Shown here: piece by piece, positions 2 through 15,902 of the stretch | Layout: each line of letters opens with the position of its first letter | How positions within the stretch are numbered: the stretch's first letter is position 1 | Source of the DNA: Betaproteobacteria bacterium | GTDB lineage: Bacteria > Pseudomonadota > Gammaproteobacteria > Burkholderiales > Burkholderiaceae | Assembly: GCA_018969885.1 (NCBI GenBank) | Contig: JAGWXN010000033.1 | Location: 1-17,981 of the forward strand | Direction: 5' to 3' | Length of the DNA stretch: 17,981 nt | Position numbers and translations under genes: made by a program | The notes under the pieces: model-generated | The model's input: only the letters and a program-made list of their open reading frames with translations | The model's database searches: none | What the model was told of the DNA's origin: nothing

Positions 2-250
2 ATCACCGTCGCCCTGCCTTCGATGCGGCACAGCCTGGTGGCGGGGCTGGTGATGGTGGCGGCGCTTTCAATCGGTGAGTTTCAGGTGTCCAACCTGATT
101 GCAAGCTTCAAGCACCGAACCTATCCGGTGGTGCTGCTGCAGGCGTTCTACGGTGCAACCGGCTATGCGTGTGCAGCCACCGTAGTGCTCCTGGGGCTGG
201 CCTTGTGCGCGGCCGGCCTCTCGGCGCGGCGAACCGGTGCAGTGCAATGA
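2..250 (+). CDS. ABC transporter permease, C-terminal fragment (gene starts before the window)
   Basis: Only the last 82 residues are visible and no start lies in the window. The reading frame opens at base 2 and ends at the TGA at 248-250. The fragment has two hydrophobic stretches, one around MVAALSIGEFQVSNL and a final one around AATVVLLGLALCAAGLSA. These fit the last two membrane helices of a binding-protein-dependent transport permease of the PotB/ThiP/FbpB type. Its stop codon overlaps the ATG of the ATPase gene in an ATGA arrangement, which implies translational coupling and a common complex. It would pair with the second permease at 2508-3350 to form the membrane channel. The family call rests mostly on context, because the diagnostic EAA loop lies outside the window. 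Confidence 0.85.
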   Translation: MTVALPSMRHSLVAGLVMVAALSIGEFQVSNLIASFKHRTYPVVLLQAFYGATGYACAATVVLLGLALCAAGLSARRTGAVQ

Positions 251-1335
251 GCATTAAGCTGGAACAACTCGAGCACCGCTACCCGGGAACCGGACAGGGA
301 TTGCTGGGCGTCTCACTTGAGGTGGCGCGCGGCGAACTGCTCGCCGTGATTGGCGCAAGTGGCTGCGGCAAGTCCACCCTGCTCAGGCTGGTGGCGGGGC
401 TGCTGCCGGTGCAATCGGGCCGACTGTTGATCGACGATCGCGATGTCGCCACGGTACCGCCCTGGGAACGAAGCGTCGGTATGGTGTTCCAGAGCTACGC
501 GCTATTCCCGCATCTGTCGGTGCTGGAGAACGTGGCCTACGGGCTTCGCATGCGCGGCGTAGCCGCCGTCGAGCGCCGTCGAACGGCCCAGGCGATGGTT
601 GAATCGGTGGGGCTGACTGGGCTGGAAGCGCGTCGTCCGTCGCAGCTGTCCGGCGGTCAGCAGCAGCGGGTGGCGCTCGCTCGTGCGCTCGCTTTTCGCC
701 CATCGGTTCTGCTGCTTGATGAACCGCTGGCTGCGCTCGATGCCCACATTCGAGCGCAACTGTGCGATGAGATTCGCGATATTCAACGCGCAAGCGGGGC
801 AGCCACACTCTTCGTCACGCACGATCAGCAGGAAGCGCTGATGATGGCCGACCGCGTGGCCGTGCTCCATCAGGGCAGGCTGCAGCAAGTTGATACGCCG
901 CGCGGGCTCTATTCGCGCCCCGCCAACCTGATGGTGGCCCGCTTTGTCGGGCATGCCAATCTGCTTACTGGCACTGTGCTTGAGCCGGGCCGGGTGCAGA
1001 CGGTACTGGGCGTGTTGCACGCGGATACCGGGCCTCGTCTGGCGGGTGCGGCGATCAGCGTGCTGGTTCGTCCGGAATCCATTCACCCGGATCCCGCACC
1101 CGACGCCCCGAACCGGATCCCGGGCGCGGCTGGACGGGTGCGGTTTTTAGGCTCCACCTGCCGTTGGGATTTTCTTCCCGCGTCGGGTGCGCAGTCGGCG
1201 GTCGCGGCGCAATCGGGCCTGGCCGCCGCGCCTCTGCCCACGCTCTTCTGCGAAGGCGCTACGGTGGCGTCCTCGGCGGTTTCGCTTTCTCCGGAAGCGC
1301 TGGTCATCCTCGATGACGATGCGCAGACACTTTGA
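247..1335 (+). CDS. ABC transporter ATP-binding protein (PotA/FbpC/CysA-like, with C-terminal TOBE region)
   Basis: This 362-residue protein is the cytoplasmic ATPase that powers the importer. Visible motifs are Walker A GASGCGKST at about residues 36-44, the Q-loop glutamine at 82 (FQSYALFPH), the signature LSGGQ at 134-138, Walker B VLLLDEP at 154-160 and the switch histidine at about 192 (FVTHDQQEA). The last 130 or so residues have no ATPase motifs and fit the TOBE regulatory domain of the spermidine/iron/thiamine/sulfate class. I place the start at the ATG at 247, which overlaps the permease stop. An upstream in-frame extension to 169 would lie inside the permease gene and adds no domain. 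The substrate cannot be read from the ATPase. The neighbouring uracil-degradation genes make a pyrimidine or related base a reasonable guess. Confidence 0.95.
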   Translation: MSIKLEQLEHRYPGTGQGLLGVSLEVARGELLAVIGASGCGKSTLLRLVAGLLPVQSGRLLIDDRDVATVPPWERSVGMVFQSYALFPHLSVLENVAYGLRMRGVAAVERRRTAQAMVESVGLTGLEARRPSQLSGGQQQRVALARALAFRPSVLLLDEPLAALDAHIRAQLCDEIRDIQRASGAATLFVTHDQQEALMMADRVAVLHQGRLQQVDTPRGLYSRPANLMVARFVGHANLLTGTVLEPGRVQTVLGVLHADTGPRLAGAAISVLVRPESIHPDPAPDAPNRIPGAAGRVRFLGSTCRWDFLPASGAQSAVAAQSGLAAAPLPTLFCEGATVASSAVSLSPEALVILDDDAQTL

Positions 1336-1376
1336 TCCATCACCCAACCCGTCCATTGATTCCTAAGGAGCTCGCC

Positions 1377-2465
1377 ATGAATGCTGATCATCCAATCAAC
1401 GCTCAACGTCGTGTGCTGCTGGGCGCCATGGCCGCGCTGTCGGCTAGCGGCGTCCAGGCATTTGAAGGCCCGGAGCTGTACCCAGGCGAAAAAGCGCTCT
1501 ACGCCGAGGCCGCGAAAGAAGGTCTGGTCGTGTCTTTCGATACCGGTCCTGAATGGGCCAACTGGAAGGTGCTGTTTCGCGAATTCAAGAAGCGCTACCC
1601 CGAAGTGGAGATGACCTATAACGATCTGGGCTCGGCTGCAACCGTGGTGGCGCTGGAGAAGGCGCGCCGGCGACCGCAGGCCGATACGGCGTACTACTTC
1701 GCTGCATCAGCTGTGGACGCGGCCAGGAAAGATGTAGTGGCCCCCTTCAAGCCGATCAACTTCGACAAGCTCCCTGAGGTATTTCGCGAACCCGAGGGCC
1801 GCTGGTTCACCATCCACACGTTGAATATCGCCTTTCTGGTGAACACCAAGCTGGTGAAAAATATTCCGCAGGGCTGGGCCGACCTGCTCAAGCCCGAATA
1901 CAAGAACAGCGTGACCTATCTCGATCCGCGTTCAACCGGTGTCGGTCAGGTGGGCGTGATCGCGGCGGCCTACGGCAATGGTGGCAGCATCGACAACACC
2001 AAACCGGGCACTGATTTTTTCGGCAAGCTCCATGCTGCGGGCAATGTGCAACGGGTGGAGGGCACCACGCCCTATGCCAAATTCCTGAAAGGCGAAATCC
2101 CGGTCTGGATCAGCTACGAAAACGATGGCCTCAAGGCCAAGTTCGTTGATGGCATGGGCGACGCCTGTGCGGTGATCATTCCGAAGGAGGCGAGCGCATC
2201 CGCCCCCTATGCGATCAGCCTGGTGAAGGGTGCGCCCAATCCCAACTCGGCTCGGCTGTGGCTCAACTTCACCATGAGTGAGATGGGGCAGACGCTGTTT
2301 GCCCAGGGCTTTGTCCGTCCGTCGGTGCCGGGCGTTCAGTTGCCTGCTGACGTTCGAAGCAAGATGCCTGATGCGCCCCAGCTGCGTCCGCTCGATGTCA
2401 TCAAGGCGTCGGCGCGCAAGGCAGAGATCGACCGCGACTGGGCGGCGGCCGCGCTCGCGAAATAG
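1377..2465 (+). CDS. ABC transporter periplasmic substrate-binding protein (iron/thiamine/putrescine SBP class)
   Basis: This 362-residue extracytoplasmic solute receptor lies 41 bp after the ATPase. The start is the ATG at 1377, preceded by AAGGAG at about 1365-1370 with a 6-nt spacer. The N-terminus carries a twin arginine (AQRRVLLG, residues 9-16), a hydrophobic stretch and a likely cleavage site after VQA (residue 28), so Sec or possibly Tat export is expected. The body has the pattern of the AfuA/FbpA/PotD cluster: KEGLVVSFDTG near the start, a central GWADLLKPEYK segment, and LVKGAPNPNSARLWLNF near the end. Iron-binding FbpA proteins use a tyrosine pair plus a histidine, and I could not confirm such a site. 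Iron is therefore not assumed, and a small organic substrate fits the context better. Confidence 0.92.
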   Translation: MNADHPINAQRRVLLGAMAALSASGVQAFEGPELYPGEKALYAEAAKEGLVVSFDTGPEWANWKVLFREFKKRYPEVEMTYNDLGSAATVVALEKARRRPQADTAYYFAASAVDAARKDVVAPFKPINFDKLPEVFREPEGRWFTIHTLNIAFLVNTKLVKNIPQGWADLLKPEYKNSVTYLDPRSTGVGQVGVIAAAYGNGGSIDNTKPGTDFFGKLHAAGNVQRVEGTTPYAKFLKGEIPVWISYENDGLKAKFVDGMGDACAVIIPKEASASAPYAISLVKGAPNPNSARLWLNFTMSEMGQTLFAQGFVRPSVPGVQLPADVRSKMPDAPQLRPLDVIKASARKAEIDRDWAAAALAK

Positions 2466-2507
2466 TCGCGCGCAGGCAAATCAGCAGATCAGCGGCAGGC
2501 AGCCATC

Positions 2508-3350
2508 ATGGCGTCGGCATTCGGAAGGAGCGCGGTCAGACGACTGGGCGCGCTACCTGCCTATGCATGGCTGCTGCTGTTTCTGCTGCTGCCGCTGGGA
2601 TCGCTACTGATTGAAGTGGCGATCGAATCCGAGGCGCTATCGGTAAGCCTGCGTGACGATGCCTTACTCGGGTCAGCAGCGTGGAACACCCTCCTTCTCG
2701 GAGCCGGCACTGCCACGCTGTCGCTCCTCGCGGGTGCGCCGCTTGCTCGCGCGGTGGCGCGCTTATCCGAAAGAAAGCGGCAGCTCATGCTGGTGCTGCT
2801 GGGGGTGCCGCTCACCTTCTCCGGGCTGGTGATTGCCTACGGGTTCATTCTCGCCTTCGGCCGTGCCGGGTTCATCACGCAACTGCTCGCCATGCTGGGC
2901 GCTGATCCGGCGGTGGCCGGCCAATGGATTTACTCAACCGGCGGGCTTGCGTTTGCCTACGGCTACTACCTGATTCCCCGGGTGGCGCTGATCATGGTGC
3001 CCCTGTTCGCGAATCTCGATCGTCGACCCTACGACGCAGCGCTCACCCTGGGAGCGCCCCCCTGGCGCGCATGGCTGGATACCGATTTTCGGGAACTCGC
3101 GCCTTCTTTTGCGGCGATCTGGTGCCTGATCGCCGCGGTGGCAATGGGCACATACGGCACGGCACTCGCACTGGCAGGCACGCAGATCAATATTCTGCCC
3201 TTGCTCATCTATCTGAAGATTTCCGATGGCAGCGGTGATTTCCCGATGGCAGCGGCGCTCTCGCTCCTGCTGCTCGGCATGTGTGTGCTGGTACTCGCAG
3301 CGGGTGAACTCGCTACGCGTGGCCGGGACCGTCTGCAGGTCACTCACTGA
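2508..3350 (+). CDS. ABC transporter permease (second membrane subunit)
   Basis: This 280-residue inner-membrane protein has about six hydrophobic segments, at roughly residues 17-38, 60-83, 92-118, 141-166, 200-224 and 247-267. The EAA loop that docks onto the ATPase is visible at about residues 176-195 (YDAALTLGAPPWRAWL). It lies 42 bp after the binding-protein gene and has only a weak ribosome site (AGGCAG). The gene order permease-ATPase-binding protein-permease puts the two single-domain permeases at opposite ends of the operon. Both are about half the length of fused FbpB-type permeases, so they should form a heterodimeric channel. Confidence 0.93.
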   Translation: MASAFGRSAVRRLGALPAYAWLLLFLLLPLGSLLIEVAIESEALSVSLRDDALLGSAAWNTLLLGAGTATLSLLAGAPLARAVARLSERKRQLMLVLLGVPLTFSGLVIAYGFILAFGRAGFITQLLAMLGADPAVAGQWIYSTGGLAFAYGYYLIPRVALIMVPLFANLDRRPYDAALTLGAPPWRAWLDTDFRELAPSFAAIWCLIAAVAMGTYGTALALAGTQINILPLLIYLKISDGSGDFPMAAALSLLLLGMCVLVLAAGELATRGRDRLQVTH

Positions 3351-3361
3351 AAGATCTCAAT

Positions 3362-3934
3362 ATGACTTCGAACGCTGTTTTGCTGCCGGAAACGCTCCTG
3401 TCGCTGTTGCCTGACGCGATGCTGCGCGAGCGAGCAATGCATCTGCTTGCCCGGCAGTCTGGACCTCACGCGGTGCGTCAGCCAGTCTCGGTGGTGGGGC
3501 CCCGCGAAGCCACCGACGTCCAGCTCTCCTGCGCGCGCCGGGTGGGCGAGGTGCTGGGTTCGCTACGCGTGCCCGTATTGTGCGGCGGGAAGAATGGCGT
3601 AATGTCGGCAGTGTCTGAAGGCGTATCGACATGCGGTGGCATTGTGGTGGGTCTTCTTCCTGAGGAAGACACCAGCCTCGCCAATCCGTATCTCACCGTT
3701 GCGGTACCCACCGGACTGGGCATCATCCGCAACGCGTTGATTGCCCGCGCAGCCCGGGCCATGGTTGCCATCGGCGGGGGATTGGGCACAACTTCCGAAA
3801 TGGCGCTCGCGCTGCAATGGGGTAAGCCGGTCTTGGCGATCCACGGCGCGCCTGAAGTGCCAGGCTATCGCAGGTTTGACGAAGAGGAGCGCTTGCTCGA
3901 CGCGTTGCTCGAAGAGTTGTGCCAGGACCGCTGA
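3362..3934 (+). CDS. LOG/TIGR00725-like nucleotide-binding protein (Rossmann fold, SLOG superfamily)
   Basis: This 190-residue protein starts 11 bp after the permease and is probably cotranscribed with the importer. It shows the SLOG/LOG pattern: VVGPRE at about 44-49, LCGGKNGVMSAVSEG at 73-87, and GGGLGTTSE at 138-146, the equivalent of the LOG PGGxGTxxE motif. An upstream arginine (R123) and E146 correspond to the catalytic pair of cytokinin-nucleotide phosphoribohydrolases. In that family the reaction is hydrolysis of the N-glycosidic bond of a nucleoside 5'-monophosphate, releasing ribose 5-phosphate and a base. The activity of TIGR00725 members is not established. Sitting next to upp and the URC genes, a role on UMP or a ring-opened UMP derivative is an attractive but unproven idea. 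The gene converges with upp, with 10 bp between the stop codons. Confidence 0.85.
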   Translation: MTSNAVLLPETLLSLLPDAMLRERAMHLLARQSGPHAVRQPVSVVGPREATDVQLSCARRVGEVLGSLRVPVLCGGKNGVMSAVSEGVSTCGGIVVGLLPEEDTSLANPYLTVAVPTGLGIIRNALIARAARAMVAIGGGLGTTSEMALALQWGKPVLAIHGAPEVPGYRRFDEEERLLDALLEELCQDR

Positions 3935-3944
3935 CGCGCGCTGT

Positions 3945-4580
3945 TTATTTCGTTCCGTAGAGCCGGTCACCTGCATCGCCGAGTCCGGGGAGAATATAAC
4001 CGTGTTCATTGAGTTCGCGATCAATGGCCGCGGTGTATACCGTCACCGCGGGGTGTCGAGCATGAAAATTCGCCAGGCCTTCCGGGGCGGCGAGCAGGCA
4101 CGCGAAGCGAATCGATCGTGCGCCGGCCTCGCGGATGCGATCGACAGCTGCGACCGCTGAGTGCCCGGTGGCGAGCATGGGGTCGAGCACGATCACGTCG
4201 CGATTGGCAATATCGTCGGGAAGCTTGCAGTAATACTCCACAGCATCGAGCGTGTGGGGATCGCGATACAGCCCAACATGTCCCACTCGTGCTCCGGGAA
4301 CCACTTCCAGCATGCCGTCCAGCAGGCCGTTCCCGGCCCGAAGGATTGGCACGAACACGATTTTCTTGCCGTCGATAAGGGGAGCACGCATCCGTTCGAG
4401 GGGTGTCTCGATCTCCACATCGATGGTTGGGATGTCGCGTGTGAGTTCATAGGCAAGAAGCATGGCGATTTCATGCATCAATCGCCGGAAGCTGCTCGTG
4501 CTGCGGTCTTTTTCGCGCATCAGCGTGAGCTTGTGCTGCACCAGAGGGTGCTGAATAAGACGGGCGTTGGACGGGCTCAT
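3945..4580 (-). CDS. upp: Uracil phosphoribosyltransferase
   Basis: This 211-residue cytoplasmic enzyme converts uracil and PRPP into UMP and pyrophosphate. The PRPP loop is clear at about residues 130-142 ([13 protein letters not shown]), and the uracil-binding C-terminal segment [16 protein letters not shown] is at 194-209. [13 protein letters not shown] at 78-90 is also typical. Length matches the bacterial family of about 208-212 residues. The start is the ATG at 4580, with GGAG about 9 nt upstream; longer in-frame starts would run into the preceding gene. It is the last gene of the URC1-URC4-upp operon, 43 bp after URC4. In the yeast URC pathway, UPRT (URC6) is the entry step, so this copy may serve degradation as well as salvage. 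Confidence 0.97.
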
Positions 4581-4623
4581 CGGGCAGGACTCCGTTTCAT
4601 GGTGGTTGGCCCAGCGGGGGCCT

Positions 4624-5937
4624 TCAGAATAACGATCCCGCCGTATCGACGGTGAGTGGGGGACGGCCAGCTCGAAGCCGTTCGGCGTACCTGCGCCCGG
4701 CGGCCCAGGTGCCCCCCTCAAGGATGCAGGCGAGCGGGAGCGATCGGGCGTGATGCCCGTTTTGCTCGAGCAGACGGCGTACTTCATGCGCGAGGGCGTC
4801 GATCAGCGTGACGGTCAGTGCACGCCATTCGATGATCAGCGTATCGGCAGGGGTCCAGGTGCGCTCCGCGAGGCTAGGATCGCGAAGCACCAGCACGCCT
4901 GTATCCACCAGCAGCCCGCCGTTCCGATACTCAGGAAGCCCGCTGAGCGCATCCAGATTGCTGATGGTGAACCCCGCCTCGGTGAGCGGTTCGATCAGCG
5001 AATAACAGAGCCACTGACTCAGTTTGTGAAACGGCACCCAGCCCTGACTGCTGCCGCTCGAGGGCTCGGGGTCGGTGGCTGCTGGGTGTGACCAGAGATC
5101 ACCGCGTGCACCATCCGGCGCCTCGGAGGCCTTGAGCCAGACAGACGAAAGCGCACTCACGGTCTGATGGAGAAGCGCTGCAGCCGAAATCGTGGGGCGT
5201 TGGCTTTCACTTCCACCGGAGGCGGTTTCAAGGAGTGGCGCGTACAGGTCGGCCACTCGGCGGTCACCCCGCTCGCGCAGCGCCGCCCCGAGCCGATTCA
5301 TGAGAGCCAGTCGCCCGTCCAGGCCTTCCAGGGGATTGTCTGGACGGTTCTGCAACCAATCGGATAACTGGGCCCGAGTAAGGCTTTCCAGTCCGGTGGC
5401 ATCAGCCTGTAGCGGCTGGCGGGCGTCAGACGAAAAAGCGCCTTGACTGAAGGCTTCAATGCTCGCCACCGCCAGGCCTTCGGAGCGCTGGTGGGGGTGC
5501 CCGGCCGAATCGACAAACCGCCAACCCGGTCCGGAGCCCGCATCGAGCAGGACGCTCACCACACAGAGGTCGAGCTTGGTGAGTAAAACCGCTCGCGAGT
5601 CCGGGGCAGGGTGTGTACGCGCCAGCAGTCCGAGGAGGCCCGCAGCGCGGTCCTGGCCTTGTGTTTCAAAGTGACGCCAGCGGCTGTGAAAAGGCACCTT
5701 CAGATCGGGAAAGCGCTCGAGCGTGAGCGCGGCGACGTCGCGGGCGGTATGGGTGATCCGGTCACGCTGCACGGTCCACCACGCCGAATGTCCGGCCTCG
5801 ATCCACTGGGTAATGGCTGCCGATCGCGAACGGATGGTGGCGGCCTGCATCAAGGGCGAGCGCATACCGGCGCGCGTGCCAGTGGCGTGGCTGCCCGGTT
5901 TGGCCAAAGCGTCGAGCGAGGCTGCACGATCAGTCAT
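4624..5937 (-). CDS. DUF1688 / URC4 (urg3) family protein of uracil catabolism
   Basis: This 437-residue protein has a recognisable DUF1688 pattern: [16 protein letters not shown] in the first half, then [40 protein letters not shown] and finally [10 protein letters not shown]. Members of the family are the fungal URC4 and urg3 proteins, needed for growth on uracil as nitrogen source in Lachancea kluyveri. No biochemical reaction is firmly assigned. The start is the ATG at 5937, with GGGAG 6 nt upstream; a GTG at 5940 is possible. The gene overlaps the end of the URC1 gene by 8 bp, so the two are translationally coupled. No signal peptide or membrane segment is seen, so it should be cytoplasmic. 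Confidence 0.9.
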
Positions 5938-7222
5938 CACCGGCTCCCAGATCGCGTCCCCGCACGCTTTCGGGGGGCTCGACCTTCAGTCGTGATGGAT
6001 CGCTAAAGTAGCCGGCTGCCATCTTGGCCTGGATTTCAACCTGCGCGTCGGCCGGTACCAGGTCGTCAGGAATCGGAATTCTCTCGACGACCTCGATCCC
6101 CGAACCGGTGATGGCATCGTATTTGTCGCTGCTCATGCTGACCAGCCGGTGGATTTTTCGGATGCCCAACCAATGCAGCACATCGGGCATGAGTTCCTGG
6201 AAGCGCATGTCCTGAACCCCCGCTACACATTCGGTGCGTTCGAAATAAGTGTCGGCCCGATCGCCGCCTACCTGGCGCTTACGAGCGTTGTAGACCAGGA
6301 ATTTGGTGACTTCGCCCAGCGCGCGGCCTTCCTTGCGACTGTAGGCGATCAGACCGACGCCACCACGCTGTGCGCCCGCAATGCACTCCTCGATGGCATG
6401 CGTCAAATAAGGGCGGCAGGTACAGATGTCGGAGCCGAAGACGTCCGAGCCATTGCATTCGTCATGAACGCGCGCGGTGAGCTCAACGGCCGGGTTAGCC
6501 AGGTCGCTCACGCGACCAAACAGATAGACAGTTTGGCCACCGATGGGCGGCAGGAATACCTCAAGGTCATTGCGGGTGATCAGCTCGGGGTACATGCCGC
6601 CGGTCTGTTCAAACAGGGTGCGGCGCAGCGTGTTGCGATCAACGCCGAAACGTTTGGCGACCCCCGGCAGCCACCAGACCGGCTCAATCGCGATCTTGGT
6701 GACCGCAGCAGAGCCGTCATCAAAGAGGATCTGACCGTCTGCTTTCAGCCGACCGAATGCACAGGCCTGCCTGATCTCGGGAAGATGCACACGGGCTTCG
6801 GTGATGGCAATCGTCGGGCGGATATCGAGGCCGCTTGCAATTTGCGCAGCAAAGTCGATCTGGACCGATGCGCCCCACGGATCGATCGAAACGATCCGCT
6901 CGGCGTCAGCCCATTGCGAATACGGACCGATGCTGCGGGTGGGGCGGGTATCAGTGAGGTCGGGGCGGTGCCGGCGGTCCAGTCTTCCTGCGGCCACCGC
7001 CAGCGCTCGATAGACGCCGTAGGAACCGCTGTGTGCGCCGATCGCATTCCTTTGCTGCGGCGCTGACGTGGATCCAATGACGGGACCGCGCTCTGCCGGG
7101 TCGGGGTGTGCCCAGCGGATGGGAGGTGCACTCCCCGAGCCCTGACCGGGATGAGACGTCAGTCGGATGTGCGTGCTGGCGCGGTCATTGTTCGCCTCGC
7201 CGCCGCGGGGATCGGCATTCAT
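5930..7222 (-). CDS. GTP cyclohydrolase II-like protein, URC1 type (uracil catabolism)
   Basis: This 430-residue protein has a GTP cyclohydrolase II-like domain in its second half. The zinc motif C256-x10-C267-x-C269 (HDECNGSDVFGSDICTC) keeps the RibA spacing, and YSRKEGRALGEVTK at about 294-307 aligns with the RibA catalytic stretch YLRQEGRGIGL. About 250 residues precede the zinc site, far longer than in RibA (about 200 residues in total). That architecture, plus the adjacent DUF1688 gene, identifies the URC1 class rather than a riboflavin enzyme. In Lachancea kluyveri URC1 is required for uracil degradation and is thought to open the pyrimidine ring of a UMP-level substrate. The start is the ATG at 7222, with GGAG 7 nt upstream. 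It is the first gene of the operon and is divergent from a LysR regulator. Confidence 0.92.
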   Translation of the reverse strand: MNADPRGGEANNDRASTHIRLTSHPGQGSGSAPPIRWAHPDPAERGPVIGSTSAPQQRNAIGAHSGSYGVYRALAVAAGRLDRRHRPDLTDTRPTRSIGPYSQWADAERIVSIDPWGASVQIDFAAQIASGLDIRPTIAITEARVHLPEIRQACAFGRLKADGQILFDDGSAAVTKIAIEPVWWLPGVAKRFGVDRNTLRRTLFEQTGGMYPELITRNDLEVFLPPIGGQTVYLFGRVSDLANPAVELTARVHDECNGSDVFGSDICTCRPYLTHAIEECIAGAQRGGVGLIAYSRKEGRALGEVTKFLVYNARKRQVGGDRADTYFERTECVAGVQDMRFQELMPDVLHWLGIRKIHRLVSMSSDKYDAITGSGIEVVERIPIPDDLVPADAQVEIQAKMAAGYFSDPSRLKVEPPESVRGRDLGAGDD

Positions 7223-7348: not shown

Positions 7349-8287
7349 ATGGCTAAGCCTGTATCACTCTCCGCCTTCATTCGCAGGTTAGACGTGTCGA
7401 CGCTCGACCTGTTCGTGAGCATATGCGCAAGCGGAAGTATCGCAGCGGCGGCGTTGCGCGGGCAGCTTGCCGTGTCGTCGCTCAGTAAGCGGATCACGCT
7501 GCTCGAAGAGGCGGCGGGCTGCACGCTTCTGGAACGTCACGCGCGTGGCGTCCGTCCGACCGCGGCGGGTGAGACGCTGCTTCGCCATGCGCGCAGTCTG
7601 ATCGCAGATGTAGGTGACCTTTACGAGGATATGCGGGCGTTCGCGCAGGGTCGTCTGGGAAGCGTGCACATTGCCGCTAGTGCCTCGGCGGTTGAACTCT
7701 ATCTGCCGGAAGAAATTGCCCGCTTTGCTGCCTCCCACCCAGATATTTCGATTGACCTGATCCAGCGGACGAGCACCGAAGTGCTGCTGGCGGTTCGCGA
7801 CGGGCGTGCCGATTTCGGTTTGTGCGGATCAAGCGATGGGGGGGAGGGGCTGGAACGCCGTCCCTACCGAATGGACCATCTGGTGCTGCTCACCCCGCCA
7901 GCGCACCCGCTGGCCCGCGAGGGGTCGGCCGGTTTTTCGCAGGCGCTTGATCATGAGCAGATTGGTTTGCTCGGAAGCAGCCAGGTTCAGGCGATGCTCG
8001 AGACTGCCGCCGCTGAGGCTGGCCGGAGCCTGCGCCAGCGCATTCGCGTGGCAAGCATCAGCTCGATGTGTCGAATGGTTGAATCGGGCCTTGGGATTGC
8101 GGTGTTACCGCGCGGTATGGTGGCGCTTGCCGCGCGGCGAAATCGCAGCCGAATCGTTGCGCTCACGGATTCCTGGGCTAAGTTGCAGTTGTTTGTATAT
8201 GCGCGGCGATTCGAGCAACTCTCAGGCCCCGCCGCCATGATGCTTTCGCACCTGGGCCGTACGCGGGAGCGGCGCGTCGCGCGCTGA
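7349..8287 (+). CDS. LysR family transcriptional regulator
   Basis: This 312-residue protein has an N-terminal winged helix-turn-helix at about residues 17-75, visible as LDLFVSICASGSIAAAA, then SSLSKRITLLEEAAGCTLLER, then RGVRPTAAGETLLRHA. The effector-binding domain follows, with GSVHIAASASAVELYLPEEI and, late, RMVESGLGIAVLPRGM. The ATG at 7349 gives 15 or so residues before the usual family start and has a poor ribosome site. A GTG at 7394 with AGG upstream would give a more typical N-terminus. It is divergent from the URC1-URC4-upp operon and convergent with guaD. It is therefore the likely regulator of the URC genes, with a pyrimidine-pathway metabolite as plausible inducer. Neither point is shown by sequence alone. 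Confidence 0.93.
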   Translation: MAKPVSLSAFIRRLDVSTLDLFVSICASGSIAAAALRGQLAVSSLSKRITLLEEAAGCTLLERHARGVRPTAAGETLLRHARSLIADVGDLYEDMRAFAQGRLGSVHIAASASAVELYLPEEIARFAASHPDISIDLIQRTSTEVLLAVRDGRADFGLCGSSDGGEGLERRPYRMDHLVLLTPPAHPLAREGSAGFSQALDHEQIGLLGSSQVQAMLETAAAEAGRSLRQRIRVASISSMCRMVESGLGIAVLPRGMVALAARRNRSRIVALTDSWAKLQLFVYARRFEQLSGPAAMMLSHLGRTRERRVAR

Positions 8288-8355: not shown

Positions 8356-9633
8356 TCAAGGCCAAACCGGCTGAACTACCTGGCCCCTCACCACCGTCGC
8401 GGCGATATTGCGATCGTCGCCCAACACGATCAAAGCGAACAGTCGCGCGTCGTCAGATTCGGCCTGATTCCAGCGGCGAGCCAGAAGCGGCTTAGCCCGA
8501 GGGTCGATCACAATCCAGTCAGCGTCGAATCCGGGTTGGATGCGACCCAGTTGATCGCCCAGGCCCAACGCATCGGCGCTGCCTGTACTGGCATGCCACC
8601 AGAGCGTGGACGGCGAGAGGTACTGGCCACCCAGTCGGGCCACCTCGAACGCGGCCATCATGGTCCTGAAGGGCGAAAGCGAGGAGCCTCCTCCGATGTC
8701 GCTCGCAAGCGTCCAGGGATGATTGGCCGCTGCAAAATTGAACAGTCCGCTGCCAAGGAACAGATTGGACGTGGGGCACACGGCGGCCACTGCCTGGCGG
8801 TCGCGCAGCAGGGCCCGATCATCGGGGTCGAGATGAATGCAGTGCCCCCAGAGCGAGTGCGGTCGGATCAGGCCAAAGCGTTCATAGACCGAGAGATAAC
8901 TGCGATCGTTGGGAAAGAGTCGTCCTACCCAGGCGATTTCGTCTAGATTCTCGGCAACATGCGATTGCACGGTGACTTCGGGAAAGGCCCTCGCGAGTTC
9001 GCCGGCGCCGGCGAGCTGCCGTTCGGTGGAGGTGGGCGCGAAACGCGGTGTGATCGCGTAGCGAAGCCTCCCACGGCCGTGCCAGCGGCGAATCAATGCT
9101 GCTGAGTCGAGGAGCGAACGCTCGGTATCGTCACGCAAGGTCTGCGGCGAGTGTCGATCCTGCAGGACTTTGCCAGCAACCATGGCGAGGCCCAGCTCAT
9201 CGCTTGCCTGCATGAACGCATCGACCGATTCGGGATGCGCGGTGCAGTACACGGCCGCCGTGGTGACACCGTGCCTCAGCAGTTCGCCGAGAAACACCCG
9301 CGCCACCTCGCCAGCATGATGGCGGTCTGCGAAACGAGCCTCCTCCGGGAACGTATGGTTTTCCAGCCAGGGCAGCAGCCCCTCGGCGGGCGAGCCGATG
9401 ACATCGAGCTGGGGGAAGTGAACATGGCTGTCGATAAAGCCTGGTGCGATCAGCATGTCCCGGTGGTCATGCTCCACCTGTTCGCCAGGGACCGGGGCGC
9501 GAACGCCGCGCACGATGCCCTGAGCATCGACCTCAATCACCTGGTCGGAAAGAATGCGCGCCTGCTGAGGCGTGTCGAATCGCAGGAGGTTACCGCGCCA
9601 GCGCGTGCGTGAGATGAGTGAGGGTTCGGTCAT
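8356..9633 (-). CDS. guaD: Guanine deaminase (amidohydrolase superfamily)
   Basis: This 425-residue cytoplasmic metalloenzyme should convert guanine to xanthine and ammonia. Metal ligands are visible: H70 and H72 in PGFIDSHVHFPQ, H225 with the proton-shuttle E228 in SHVAEN, H264 in WGHCIHLD and D312 in SDIGGG. The stretch CPTSNLFLGSGLF at 286-298 is characteristic of guanine deaminases as opposed to other amidohydrolases, and the length fits. The start is the ATG at 9633; no good Shine-Dalgarno is seen there. It is convergent with the LysR gene (68-bp gap) and divergent from the cupredoxin gene. Together with the pyrimidine genes it suggests a nucleobase nitrogen-scavenging region. A related pterin or triazine deaminase is a less likely alternative. 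Confidence 0.92.
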   Translation of the reverse strand: MTEPSLISRTRWRGNLLRFDTPQQARILSDQVIEVDAQGIVRGVRAPVPGEQVEHDHRDMLIAPGFIDSHVHFPQLDVIGSPAEGLLPWLENHTFPEEARFADRHHAGEVARVFLGELLRHGVTTAAVYCTAHPESVDAFMQASDELGLAMVAGKVLQDRHSPQTLRDDTERSLLDSAALIRRWHGRGRLRYAITPRFAPTSTERQLAGAGELARAFPEVTVQSHVAENLDEIAWVGRLFPNDRSYLSVYERFGLIRPHSLWGHCIHLDPDDRALLRDRQAVAAVCPTSNLFLGSGLFNFAAANHPWTLASDIGGGSSLSPFRTMMAAFEVARLGGQYLSPSTLWWHASTGSADALGLGDQLGRIQPGFDADWIVIDPRAKPLLARRWNQAESDDARLFALIVLGDDRNIAATVVRGQVVQPVWP

Positions 9634-13998: not shown

Positions 13999-14487
13999 TC
14001 AGATCGGAATGATCATCAGCGTTTCAACTGCGCGTGAATCGAAGGTCATGAGGCGACGAGCAAAGCGCGGCTCGGTACCGCTGGCGTCCACCAGATCTTC
14101 GCAGCGTCCGCCCGCAAAGAAAATGGTGTCACCGGTGGTGACCAGCGTACGGAATACGGCGAACGCGGAGCGCACCTGAAGGAGCCCGGCCTCGGTTTGT
14201 CCGGTGACCTGGATTGCCGAGACCACATGTCGGTAGTGCTGAGGCTGATAAATGTTCGCCACGCGCATGGACCGGATGCGATCGCGCAGCTGCGCTGCGT
14301 TATGGGTATCGATGATGGCTAGTGGCAGGCCGAGGTCGGCATTAAAGCGTGAGCAAACGGTGTAGCGACCGTCCTCGCGCATGAGCTCGGCAATGCGTTC
14401 AACCCGGTCATCATCGATGGCGTGCGCCCACTCGGCGATCAGCCAGGACACGGTAGTGATGTGGGTATGGTGCAGGGCGAGATCCAT
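13999..14487 (-). CDS. Rieske aromatic-ring-hydroxylating oxygenase, small (beta) subunit
   Basis: This 162-residue protein of the NTF2-like fold fits ring-hydroxylating dioxygenase beta subunits. Typical features are the early acidic stretch HAIDDDRVERIAELM, the YQPQHYRHVVSAIQV segment and the final LMTFDSRAVETLMIIPI strand. It starts 2 bp after the alpha-subunit stop, as is usual for this pair, and helps hold the alpha3beta3 hexamer together. It most resembles the anthranilate (AndAd) and salicylate 5-hydroxylase small subunits as I recall them, without a search to confirm. Confidence 0.9.
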   Translation of the reverse strand: MDLALHHTHITTVSWLIAEWAHAIDDDRVERIAELMREDGRYTVCSRFNADLGLPLAIIDTHNAAQLRDRIRSMRVANIYQPQHYRHVVSAIQVTGQTEAGLLQVRSAFAVFRTLVTTGDTIFFAGGRCEDLVDASGTEPRFARRLMTFDSRAVETLMIIPI

Positions 14488-14489
14488 GA

Positions 14490-15779
14490 TCAGAGTCCCA
14501 TGTCCTGGCGATATACGTTCCAGAAGTTGCGGATCGCGCGTTCGGATAGTTTGCTTGAGCCACCACTTTCCAGCGTCTTGCCGCCCATCTCGATGAATGA
14601 CGCACCGTCTTCGCCGTCGGCAAACGCCCGCTGCATCATCTCGCAGACCGCTGCATCTTCCACCGAGACCAGGCCCGCGGAGCCTGCGAGGTTGGTCTGA
14701 TTGAGTCGGGTGCGCGTGGTGGCCTCGTCGTCATCGGCAAAGCCAAGGTAGGTCCAGACCAGATCGCACTGCCGAACGCCGCGCGGGATCAGTTGCCGGG
14801 TGGCGAGGCTGTTGGCAATCTGATGGAGTACGAATGAGGGATAGGTGTTGAGGATCTGAACGCTGATGCCATCGCCGAACTCATCGCGCCAGCGAAGGAT
14901 GGAGGGATCCTCGAGCTTCATCTGATCATTGTGCGAGCGAAGCTGGTTCGCGGTGCTGTCGTAGTCGGTTGATTTTTTCTCGGTACCCGCCTTGGTGTAG
15001 AAATAGACATGACGACCCGAGCCATCGATCGTCATAGCCGATTCCTGCGATTGCCGCGAGAGGCCGAAGGTGCCGTAAAACGTATGGAGAATGTTCGCGT
15101 GGTACGAGTCGCGCGGATTCTCGTGATAGGTCTTCCAGTTCGCGTGAATACGCTGCGTGTCGTAGCCCAGCACCTTGAGCGGGCGGTTGAGCACGCGGCG
15201 AATGCCCGGCGCCACCTCTCCCAACCAGTCAGCCAGTGGCTCAATGTTATCGCTGAAGCTCGCAAACACCAGCCCGCAGAGGGTGTCGACTTTGAGCTTT
15301 CGAAGACCGTGCTGCGTCTTGTCGAAATCGGCAGGCAGGCCGCCCTCTCCGCGCAGCCCCTGGCTGAAGGCGGCATGGCTCAGGTCGCCCGAAAGCGTGT
15401 AGCTCCAGGCGTGATAAACACAGTAAAGCTTGGCAGCGGTTCCGAAGGGCTCGCGGCAGATCAGATTGCCGCGATGCGCGCACCGATTCACCATCGCATG
15501 CAAGCTGCCGTTTTCCGCGCGCGCAAGGATGACGGGCGTGTCGCCGATGAAGGTGGTTTTGTAGTTTCCCGGCCCGGGCACCTCCACTTCCAGGCCAACG
15601 TAGTGCCAGGCGCGCCCGCGAAAGATGCGCTGCTGTTCGAGCGCGTACACGCTGGGGTCGGTGTAGACCCAATACGGCGCACGCCGATAACCCTCCGCGG
15701 GCCAGTGGCGAGCGGGGGCGGCGGGTACGGCGAGGGCTGACGGGATGGCCTGCGAGGACGGCGGGACGGAGGTCTGCAT
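14490..15779 (-). CDS. Rieske aromatic-ring-hydroxylating oxygenase, large (alpha) subunit
   Basis: This 429-residue catalytic subunit carries the [2Fe-2S] Rieske motif C100-x-H102-x17-C120-x2-H123 (CAHRGN...CVYHAW). The mononuclear iron site is D224-x2-H227-x4-H232 in ENPRDSYHANILH, with a late acidic residue in VSVEDAAVCE as probable third ligand. It adds oxygen to an aromatic ring, probably a benzoate-type acid. The ENPRDSYHANILHTF stretch reminds me of AndAc-type anthranilate dioxygenase and salicylate 5-hydroxylase alpha subunits. I place the start at the ATG at 15779, though its ribosome site is poor. An in-frame TTG at 15824 would add 15 residues. Ferredoxin and reductase genes, required for activity, are absent from the window. 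Confidence 0.93.
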   Translation of the reverse strand: MQTSVPPSSQAIPSALAVPAAPARHWPAEGYRRAPYWVYTDPSVYALEQQRIFRGRAWHYVGLEVEVPGPGNYKTTFIGDTPVILARAENGSLHAMVNRCAHRGNLICREPFGTAAKLYCVYHAWSYTLSGDLSHAAFSQGLRGEGGLPADFDKTQHGLRKLKVDTLCGLVFASFSDNIEPLADWLGEVAPGIRRVLNRPLKVLGYDTQRIHANWKTYHENPRDSYHANILHTFYGTFGLSRQSQESAMTIDGSGRHVYFYTKAGTEKKSTDYDSTANQLRSHNDQMKLEDPSILRWRDEFGDGISVQILNTYPSFVLHQIANSLATRQLIPRGVRQCDLVWTYLGFADDDEATTRTRLNQTNLAGSAGLVSVEDAAVCEMMQRAFADGEDGASFIEMGGKTLESGGSSKLSERAIRNFWNVYRQDMGL

Positions 15780-15902
15780 AGGTCTGGCCGGTTGGCGATG
15801 GTTTGACTGGGGCGCGGCGGTCAATCATTACATACCCCAGCGGCGTCAATCCGAGAGCCCGCGAATGCTGCCGGGCGACGGGCCGCATCGGTCGAGGCTA
15901 AC
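15780..15902. promoter_or_regulatory. Gap upstream of the Rieske operon, downstream of arfA
   Basis: This 123-bp gap lies between two minus-strand genes and should hold the promoter of the Rieske-Bug operon. On the minus strand it contains TTGACG followed by TATGTAATGA, but the spacing is too short for a standard sigma70 promoter. I found no intrinsic terminator for the upstream gene. Confidence 0.3.

What the first reader, a model, noticed from the sequence alone, without database searches (positions are those of the whole stretch)
3362..7222. Bacterial URC-type uracil degradation cluster beside an ABC importer
A GTP cyclohydrolase II-like URC1, a DUF1688/URC4 protein and UPRT form one operon with overlapping or close genes, and converge with an ABC importer plus LOG-like operon. 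The URC route is a poorly resolved pyrimidine degradation pathway, distinct from the reductive (dihydropyrimidine) and Rut routes. No Rut or dihydropyrimidine genes are visible here, so this may be the strain's way to use uracil as nitrogen source. Known: the yeast URC1/URC4 genetics. Inferred: that all these genes form one pathway.
Basis: partly seen in the sequence, partly recalled or inferred. Interest (0 to 1): 0.72.

Follow-up and report, generated by a model that had tools for sequence, protein, structure and literature searches.

The report
Uracil-degradation operon; URC4 probable ribosidase
This is a known type of bacterial gene cluster for breaking down uracil, and its unexplained protein URC4 has the fold and catalytic positions of an enzyme that cuts modified bases off ribose phosphate, which suggests it is the step that frees urea.

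The parts
5930..7222 (-). URC1, GTP cyclohydrolase II-like; close relative of solved structures 7eev/7ej3 (recalled as UTP cyclohydrolase)
   Evidence: PF12471, PF00925, PRK07198 above cut-off; 659 bits to 7eev, with HDECNGSDVFGSDICTC shared with it
4624..5940 (-). URC4 (DUF1688), proposed ribosylurea-phosphate N-ribosidase with a Qng1-like fold; Lys306 and Glu337 at the catalytic positions
   Evidence: PF07958; AlphaFold pLDDT 88 and Qng1 top hits; second model; profile match
3945..4580 (-). Uracil phosphoribosyltransferase (URC6-type, upp)
   Evidence: PF14681, NF001097, TIGR01091 above cut-off; start at 4580 read from sequence
7349..8287 (+). LysR regulator, divergent from URC1; probable regulator of the operon (inference)
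   Evidence: PF03466/PF00126; same divergent place in L001 (98% identity) and L002 (77%), not found in the other 78 loci
3362..3934 (+). SLOG/LDcluster4 (TIGR00725) protein, convergent neighbour; not part of the conserved operon
   Evidence: found in 1 of 80 loci
2..3350 (+). ABC importer (probable permease end, ATPase, SBP_bac_6 binding protein, permease), substrate unknown; not part of the conserved operon
   Evidence: binding protein has no relative in the 80 loci, permease only in L001
8356..9633 (-). Guanine deaminase, possible purine partner
   Evidence: TIGR02967 above cut-off; 77% identity to a truncated copy at the end of L002, not seen in the other 79 loci; L001's contig ends before it could show

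Best explanation
The operon is a URC uracil-degradation operon. UPRT makes UMP from uracil. URC1, a cyclohydrolase, opens the pyrimidine ring of the uridine nucleotide and splits off a three-carbon piece, leaving urea attached to ribose-phosphate. URC4 is a ribosidase of the Qng1 (queuosine-5'-phosphate N-ribosidase) fold. It binds ribosylurea-phosphate and hydrolyses the bond between ribose and urea, with Lys306 and Glu337 at the catalytic positions and the aromatic C-terminus closing the pocket. The free urea then goes to urease or urea carboxylase as nitrogen source. Shown here: operon, families, predicted fold, residue conservation, urease co-occurrence. From literature: URC4 turns ribosylurea into urea in yeast. 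Inferred: the bond cut, the phosphorylated substrate, the roles of the two residues and of the C-terminus.
Against: URC4 misses the Pfam Q_salvage cut-off (12.1 against 25 bits); 29 of 40 URC4 proteins gave no Q_salvage match at all. Sequence and profile searches of the PDB found nothing. The hhalign probability of the profile match is only 70-81%. Identity to Qng1 is 14-21%. The catalytic Asp is Glu in URC4. The 80 loci were found by the peptides HSRWRHFE or PFHKLSQW, the second of which contains Lys306 and Gln309, so their conservation there is partly built in; Glu337, E371 and R373 are free of this. A shared fold does not prove a shared reaction. The urease association ignores kinship and genome size. 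If URC1 acts on UTP (recalled), the substrate would carry a triphosphate, which Qng1 is not known to take (recalled).
Confidence: 0.7

Rival explanations
1. URC4 has the Qng1 fold but acts on another bond or earlier intermediate, for example as a hydrolase or lyase on the ring-opened ureidoacrylate nucleotide, with urea released by another enzyme.
For: The Asp-to-Glu change at the catalytic place and the extra near-invariant segment HSRWRHFE point to changed chemistry.
Against: The literature passage places ribosylurea before URC4 and urea after it (PMC7530994). Qng1 and the DNA glycosylases, the clear fold relatives, are N-glycosidases (titles; function recalled).
Confidence: 0.2
2. The LOG-like SLOG protein next door is the enzyme that cleaves ribosylurea-phosphate, as LOG enzymes cleave nucleoside 5'-monophosphates, and URC4 is accessory.
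For: It converges with UPRT 10 bases away, and LOG proteins are named phosphoribohydrolases.
Against: It is present in 1 of 80 loci and far below the cytokinin-LOG cut-off (24 against 300 bits), while URC4 is there in each by the way the loci were found.
Confidence: 0.04
3. The whole region from ABC importer to guanine deaminase is one nucleobase-use island in which this importer brings in uracil or a nucleoside.
For: Guanine deaminase and LysR are kept near URC in L002. In other loci a Bmp-type importer follows UPRT in 12 of 71.
Against: The window's own importer is of another type (SBP_bac_6; weak hits to aminoethylphosphonate and thiamine models) and its binding protein has no relative in the 80 loci.
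Confidence: 0.12

Closest known systems
URC pathway operon (URC1-URC4-URC6 of Lachancea kluyveri; urg1-urg3-urg2 of Schizosaccharomyces pombe)
   Same: Same three gene families, clustered; conserved organisation in fungi and bacteria is in print (PMC3869809 and PMC2174524 passages)
   Different: Bacterial operon with a divergent LysR gene; no urea amidolyase among the 18 ORFs of the window that were scanned
Qng1/DUF2419 queuosine-5'-monophosphate N-ribosidase (7u91, 7ulc, 7u5a, 7ugk)
   Same: Fold over about 308-327 residues, the catalytic Lys, conserved Gln, Glu and Arg, a C-terminal aromatic residue
   Different: Glu in place of the catalytic Asp, about 100 extra residues, HSRWRHFE motif, 14-21% identity, below the Pfam cut-off
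GCH II-like UTP cyclohydrolase (PDB 7eev, 7ej3; Zhang 2021 ACS Catal, title seen in a reference list only)
   Same: URC1 is closely alike over 416 residues
   Different: No clear difference; the link of 7eev to that paper is recalled, not tested
LOG cytokinin riboside 5'-monophosphate phosphoribohydrolases
   Same: The neighbour 3362-3934 is in the wider SLOG group and keeps GGLGTTSE (motif recalled)
   Different: Far below the LOG cut-off, not conserved with URC

Membership tests
URC uracil-degradation operon | URC1 gene (GTP_CH_N plus GTP_cyclohydro2) | tested here: met
   PF12471 269 bits, PF00925 60 bits, PRK07198 748 bits over cut-off 403
URC uracil-degradation operon | URC4 gene (DUF1688) | tested here: met
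   PF07958 393 bits over cut-off 25
URC uracil-degradation operon | Linked uracil phosphoribosyltransferase | tested here: met
   NF001097 284 bits over cut-off 114, 43 bases after URC4; 77 of 80 related loci
URC uracil-degradation operon | Growth on uracil through ribosylurea, urea and 3-hydroxypropionate | not testable with these tools
   Needs culture and mass spectrometry
Qng1/DUF2419 (Q_salvage) | Pfam PF10343 score above gathering cut-off | tested here: not met
   Window URC4 12.1 bits against 25; 11 of 40 URC4 proteins match at E up to 10, best 1.9e-4
Qng1/DUF2419 (Q_salvage) | Qng1 fold over the whole length | tested here: met
Qng1/DUF2419 (Q_salvage) | Active-site Lys (St Lys199) | tested here: met
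   Lys306 in 201 of 201 sequences, 80 of which were found partly by a peptide holding it
Qng1/DUF2419 (Q_salvage) | Active-site Asp (St Asp231) | tested here: not met
   Glu337 in 201 of 201 URC4 sequences; a conservative change
Qng1/DUF2419 (Q_salvage) | Releases queuine from queuosine-5'-phosphate | not tested
   No assay; not expected for URC4
HhH DNA glycosylases | Fold similarity at the level of AGOG and endonuclease III | tested here: inconclusive
LOG phosphoribohydrolase (gene 3362-3934) | NF058542 equivalog cut-off | tested here: not met
   24 against 300 bits; above cut-off only for TIGR00725 (107.9 against 106.9)

The most novel reading that the evidence does not exclude
DUF1688/URC4 is a second branch of the Qng1 fold that evolved from, or beside, a tRNA-base salvage ribosidase into the urea-releasing step of pyrimidine degradation. 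It would be a nucleotide N-ribosidase that uses Lys and Glu, accepts an acyclic urea aglycone and perhaps a 5'-triphosphate held by the near-invariant HSRWRHFE segment. It would give the URC4 step of the URC pathway an enzyme with a nameable mechanism in bacteria and fungi alike.
Probability: 0.6. Interest if true: 0.7.

Novelty: new variant of a known kind. Interest (0 to 1): 0.58.

Why it matters
URC is one of four pyrimidine degradation routes, and a 2020 description of the yeast pathway still calls the steps before ribosylurea uncharacterised (PMC7530994). Pfam lists URC4 as a protein of unknown function, and 14 of the 15 NCBI names shown are 'URC4/urg3 family protein', which states no function. 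A fold and two candidate catalytic residues turn the URC4 step into a one-enzyme assay. It would also tie micronutrient (queuine) salvage and nucleobase degradation to one enzyme fold, and would fit the urease found in URC genomes.

Tried and rejected
LOG-like gene as pathway member: rejected, found in 1 of 80 loci. Window ABC importer as the URC importer: not supported; binding protein in 0 of 80 loci, permease only in L001. Urease next to URC as a general rule: rejected. No urease alpha relative lies in the ORFs of the 80 loci; one genome, G227, has urease alpha 3.5 kb from UPRT. Urea carboxylase as the general urea route: above cut-off in only 10 of 36 URC genomes, the lower matches probably being other biotin enzymes. 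Sequence search of the PDB with URC4 or its profile found nothing, so the fold link rests on predicted models and profile comparison. PF10343 in 28 URC genomes gave 0 matches; the 14 control genomes also gave none, so this does not show absence. In the phylum draw 6 of 198 matched, 5 above cut-off; the sixth (L086) lies in a frame whose start reads like a tRNA-ligase-type protein, a by-eye guess, and was dropped. Of the listed hits, 36 of 120 Qng1 proteins were put in A2 and 39 of 120 URC4 proteins in A1; all 120 URC4 hits were used. Connected-family clustering gave many antisense ORFs of this GC-rich DNA, and only selected families were identified (10 proteins). The 57 hhalign controls come from that clustering; in 24 of the 57 at least half of the ORFs are likely genes by my overlap filter, so many are antisense frames and a softer control. 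In one search the script counted 10 of 71 loci with the Bmp gene within 3 kb; L044 and L045 were missed for offsets of -28 and -10 from over-long ORF starts, giving 12. In the urease draws I dropped 6 plus 6 weak matches with E above 1e-10 before counting. Leaving out the two centre genomes, which were chosen for having URC4, the contrast is 8 of 8 against 131 of 290.
Full report
What is there. The window holds a minus-strand operon of three genes: URC1 (7222-5930), URC4 (5940-4624) and UPRT (4580-3945). URC1 and URC4 overlap by 11 bases and URC4 and UPRT are 43 bases apart. Families are clear: PF12471/PF00925 and PRK07198 for URC1, PF07958 (DUF1688) for URC4, PF14681 and NF001097 for UPRT, all above their curated cut-offs. 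A LysR gene (7349-8287) diverges from URC1. A plus-strand ABC importer (2-3350) and a SLOG/TIGR00725 gene (3362-3934) converge on UPRT, with 10 bases between the stop codons. The importer's first piece (2-250) is a permease end by eye only. Guanine deaminase follows at 8356-9633. The rest of the window holds a copper-binding protein, two TctC receptors, an FAA hydrolase, a cupin, a Rieske oxygenase pair and part of SelB.

Is the linkage real? URC1 lies beside URC4 in 80 of 80 and UPRT in 77 of 80; in the three others (L029, L050, L072) the contig or held stretch ends within 300 bases after the URC4 match. By record titles the loci span Mycobacterium, Rhodococcus and Gordonia kin, Burkholderiales genera, Nevskia, Lysobacteraceae and others. 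The SLOG gene recurs only in L001, whose URC proteins are 92-100% identical to the window's. The window's binding protein has no relative among them, and its permease only in L001; ATPase relatives of 29-44% identity are in 19 of 80. Instead, a Bmp-type (PF02608) importer gene follows UPRT on the same strand within 3 kb in 12 of 71 loci with enough downstream DNA, 10 by the script and 2 added by hand; 11 of the 12 bear Burkholderiales genus names, L044 is titled only Proteobacteria.

What was known. Passages read: fission yeast urg1, urg2 and urg3 (GTP cyclohydrolase II-like, UPRT-like, DUF1688) are clustered and induced by uracil (PMC2174524). [quoted passage not shown] In Lachancea kluyveri the URC4 product degrades ribosylurea to urea and the steps before are uncharacterised (PMC7530994, 2020). 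K. phaffii URC4 is called a putative ribosyl-urea degrading enzyme (PMC8709784). [quoted passage not shown] I saw only that title. That it concerns URC1 and PDB 7eev/7ej3 is my recollection. The window's URC1 is very like 7eev.

Sequence support. The Pfam Q_salvage profile matches 11 of 40 URC4 proteins at E up to 10, best 1.9e-4, and the window's own at 12.1 bits, below the cut-off of 25. Profile comparison of URC4 with Qng1 gave P 4.1e-5 over 275 columns, probability 70%, and with 201 URC4 sequences P 1.3e-5 over 267 columns, probability 81%. As controls, 57 families of neighbouring ORFs, many of them antisense frames, gave best P 0.042 against URC4 and 0.036 against Qng1, and best scores of 23.1 and 22.8 against 47.8 for the pair.

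Active site. The PDB mutants K199C and D231N of the bacterial Qng1 (titles, sequences) mark its studied active-site residues. In the profile alignment Lys199 falls on URC4 Lys306 and Asp231 on Glu337. Lys306 and Glu337 are each in 201 of 201 URC4 sequences. A caution: 80 of these were found by the peptides HSRWRHFE or PFHKLSQW, and the second holds Lys306 and Gln309; the 120 others came from a word search and are the best-scoring ones. Of 36 columns conserved in both families 16 carry the same residue, among them Lys306, Gln309, Glu371 and Arg373. All 120 listed URC4 proteins end in Phe and all 120 listed Qng1 proteins in Tyr. So URC4 looks like an active enzyme of this fold with Asp changed to Glu, and with an added basic segment HSRWRHFE (residues 85-92; His85, Arg87, Trp88, Arg89 and His90 in 201 of 201) that might hold the phosphate(s). 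That last point is a guess.

Mechanism. Uracil becomes UMP by UPRT (established enzyme). URC1 opens the ring at nucleotide level (family knowledge and recalled paper). URC4 then cuts the C1'-N bond of ribosylurea-phosphate, giving urea and ribose-phosphate (inferred from fold, residues and the yeast role told in PMC7530994). Urea is used by urease or urea carboxylase.

A prediction tested. If urea is released, URC genomes should be able to use urea. Urease alpha was found at E below 1e-49 in 36 of 36 URC4 genomes: 28 chosen from the loci, 8 found in two order-wide draws. In the draws, URC4 is in 5 of 150 and 5 of 150 genomes, each including the chosen centre. Urease (E below 1e-10) is in 10 of 10 URC4 genomes and in 56 of 145 plus 75 of 145 others, one-sided Fisher p 4.4e-4. 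This ignores kinship, genome size and completeness. Urea carboxylase passes its cut-off in 10 of 36. One genome, G227, has urease alpha 3.5 kb from the URC operon, but none of the 80 loci shows urease alpha within the fetched stretch. RutA is above cut-off in 4 of 36, so URC and Rut can coexist.

Novelty. The operon is a known kind. The link of URC4 to Qng1 was not found in print: 'urc4' with 'queuosine' gave 0 papers, 'DUF1688' 4, 'ribosylurea' 4, 'Qng1' 19, the three URC4 names 13, 'ribosyl-urea' and variants 2. These cover open-licence papers only. I read passages of six papers, PMC11130926 among them, and only the listings of the others. Subscription papers could hold it.

Noticed in passing
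   Followed up: partly
window 4624-5940, residues 85-92 of URC4: Near-invariant basic-aromatic segment HSRWRHFE, little conserved counterpart in Qng1; candidate phosphate-binding site.
   Followed up: partly
window 3362-3934: SLOG/TIGR00725 gene keeps a LOG-like GGLGTTSE motif (motif recalled) but is shared only with the sibling L001 among 80 loci; substrate unknown.
   Followed up: partly
L001 and L002 around LysR: The genes beyond the divergent LysR differ: guanine deaminase in the window, a TctC receptor in L001 (contig ends there), TctC-like receptors and a more distant guanine deaminase in L002, so this flank is being reshuffled.
   Followed up: partly
L015 and L069 against L034: URC4 of two Burkholderiales (Pseudorhodoferax 79%, Pseudacidovorax 68%) is closer to Rhodococcus URC4 than that of others of the order (L022, L073: 56%), which hints at lateral transfer of the operon.
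   Followed up: no
P0150, P0186, P0233: Some Qng1 proteins carry an added acetyltransferase domain (PF13673/PF00583).
   Followed up: no
12 loci, e.g. L025:5525-6520, L062, L069: A Bmp-type (nucleoside-like) importer follows UPRT, a likely dedicated importer for URC in that group.
   Followed up: partly
window 13999-15824: Rieske oxygenase alpha and beta subunits beside two TctC receptors and an FAA hydrolase, an aromatic-degradation-like island.
   Followed up: no
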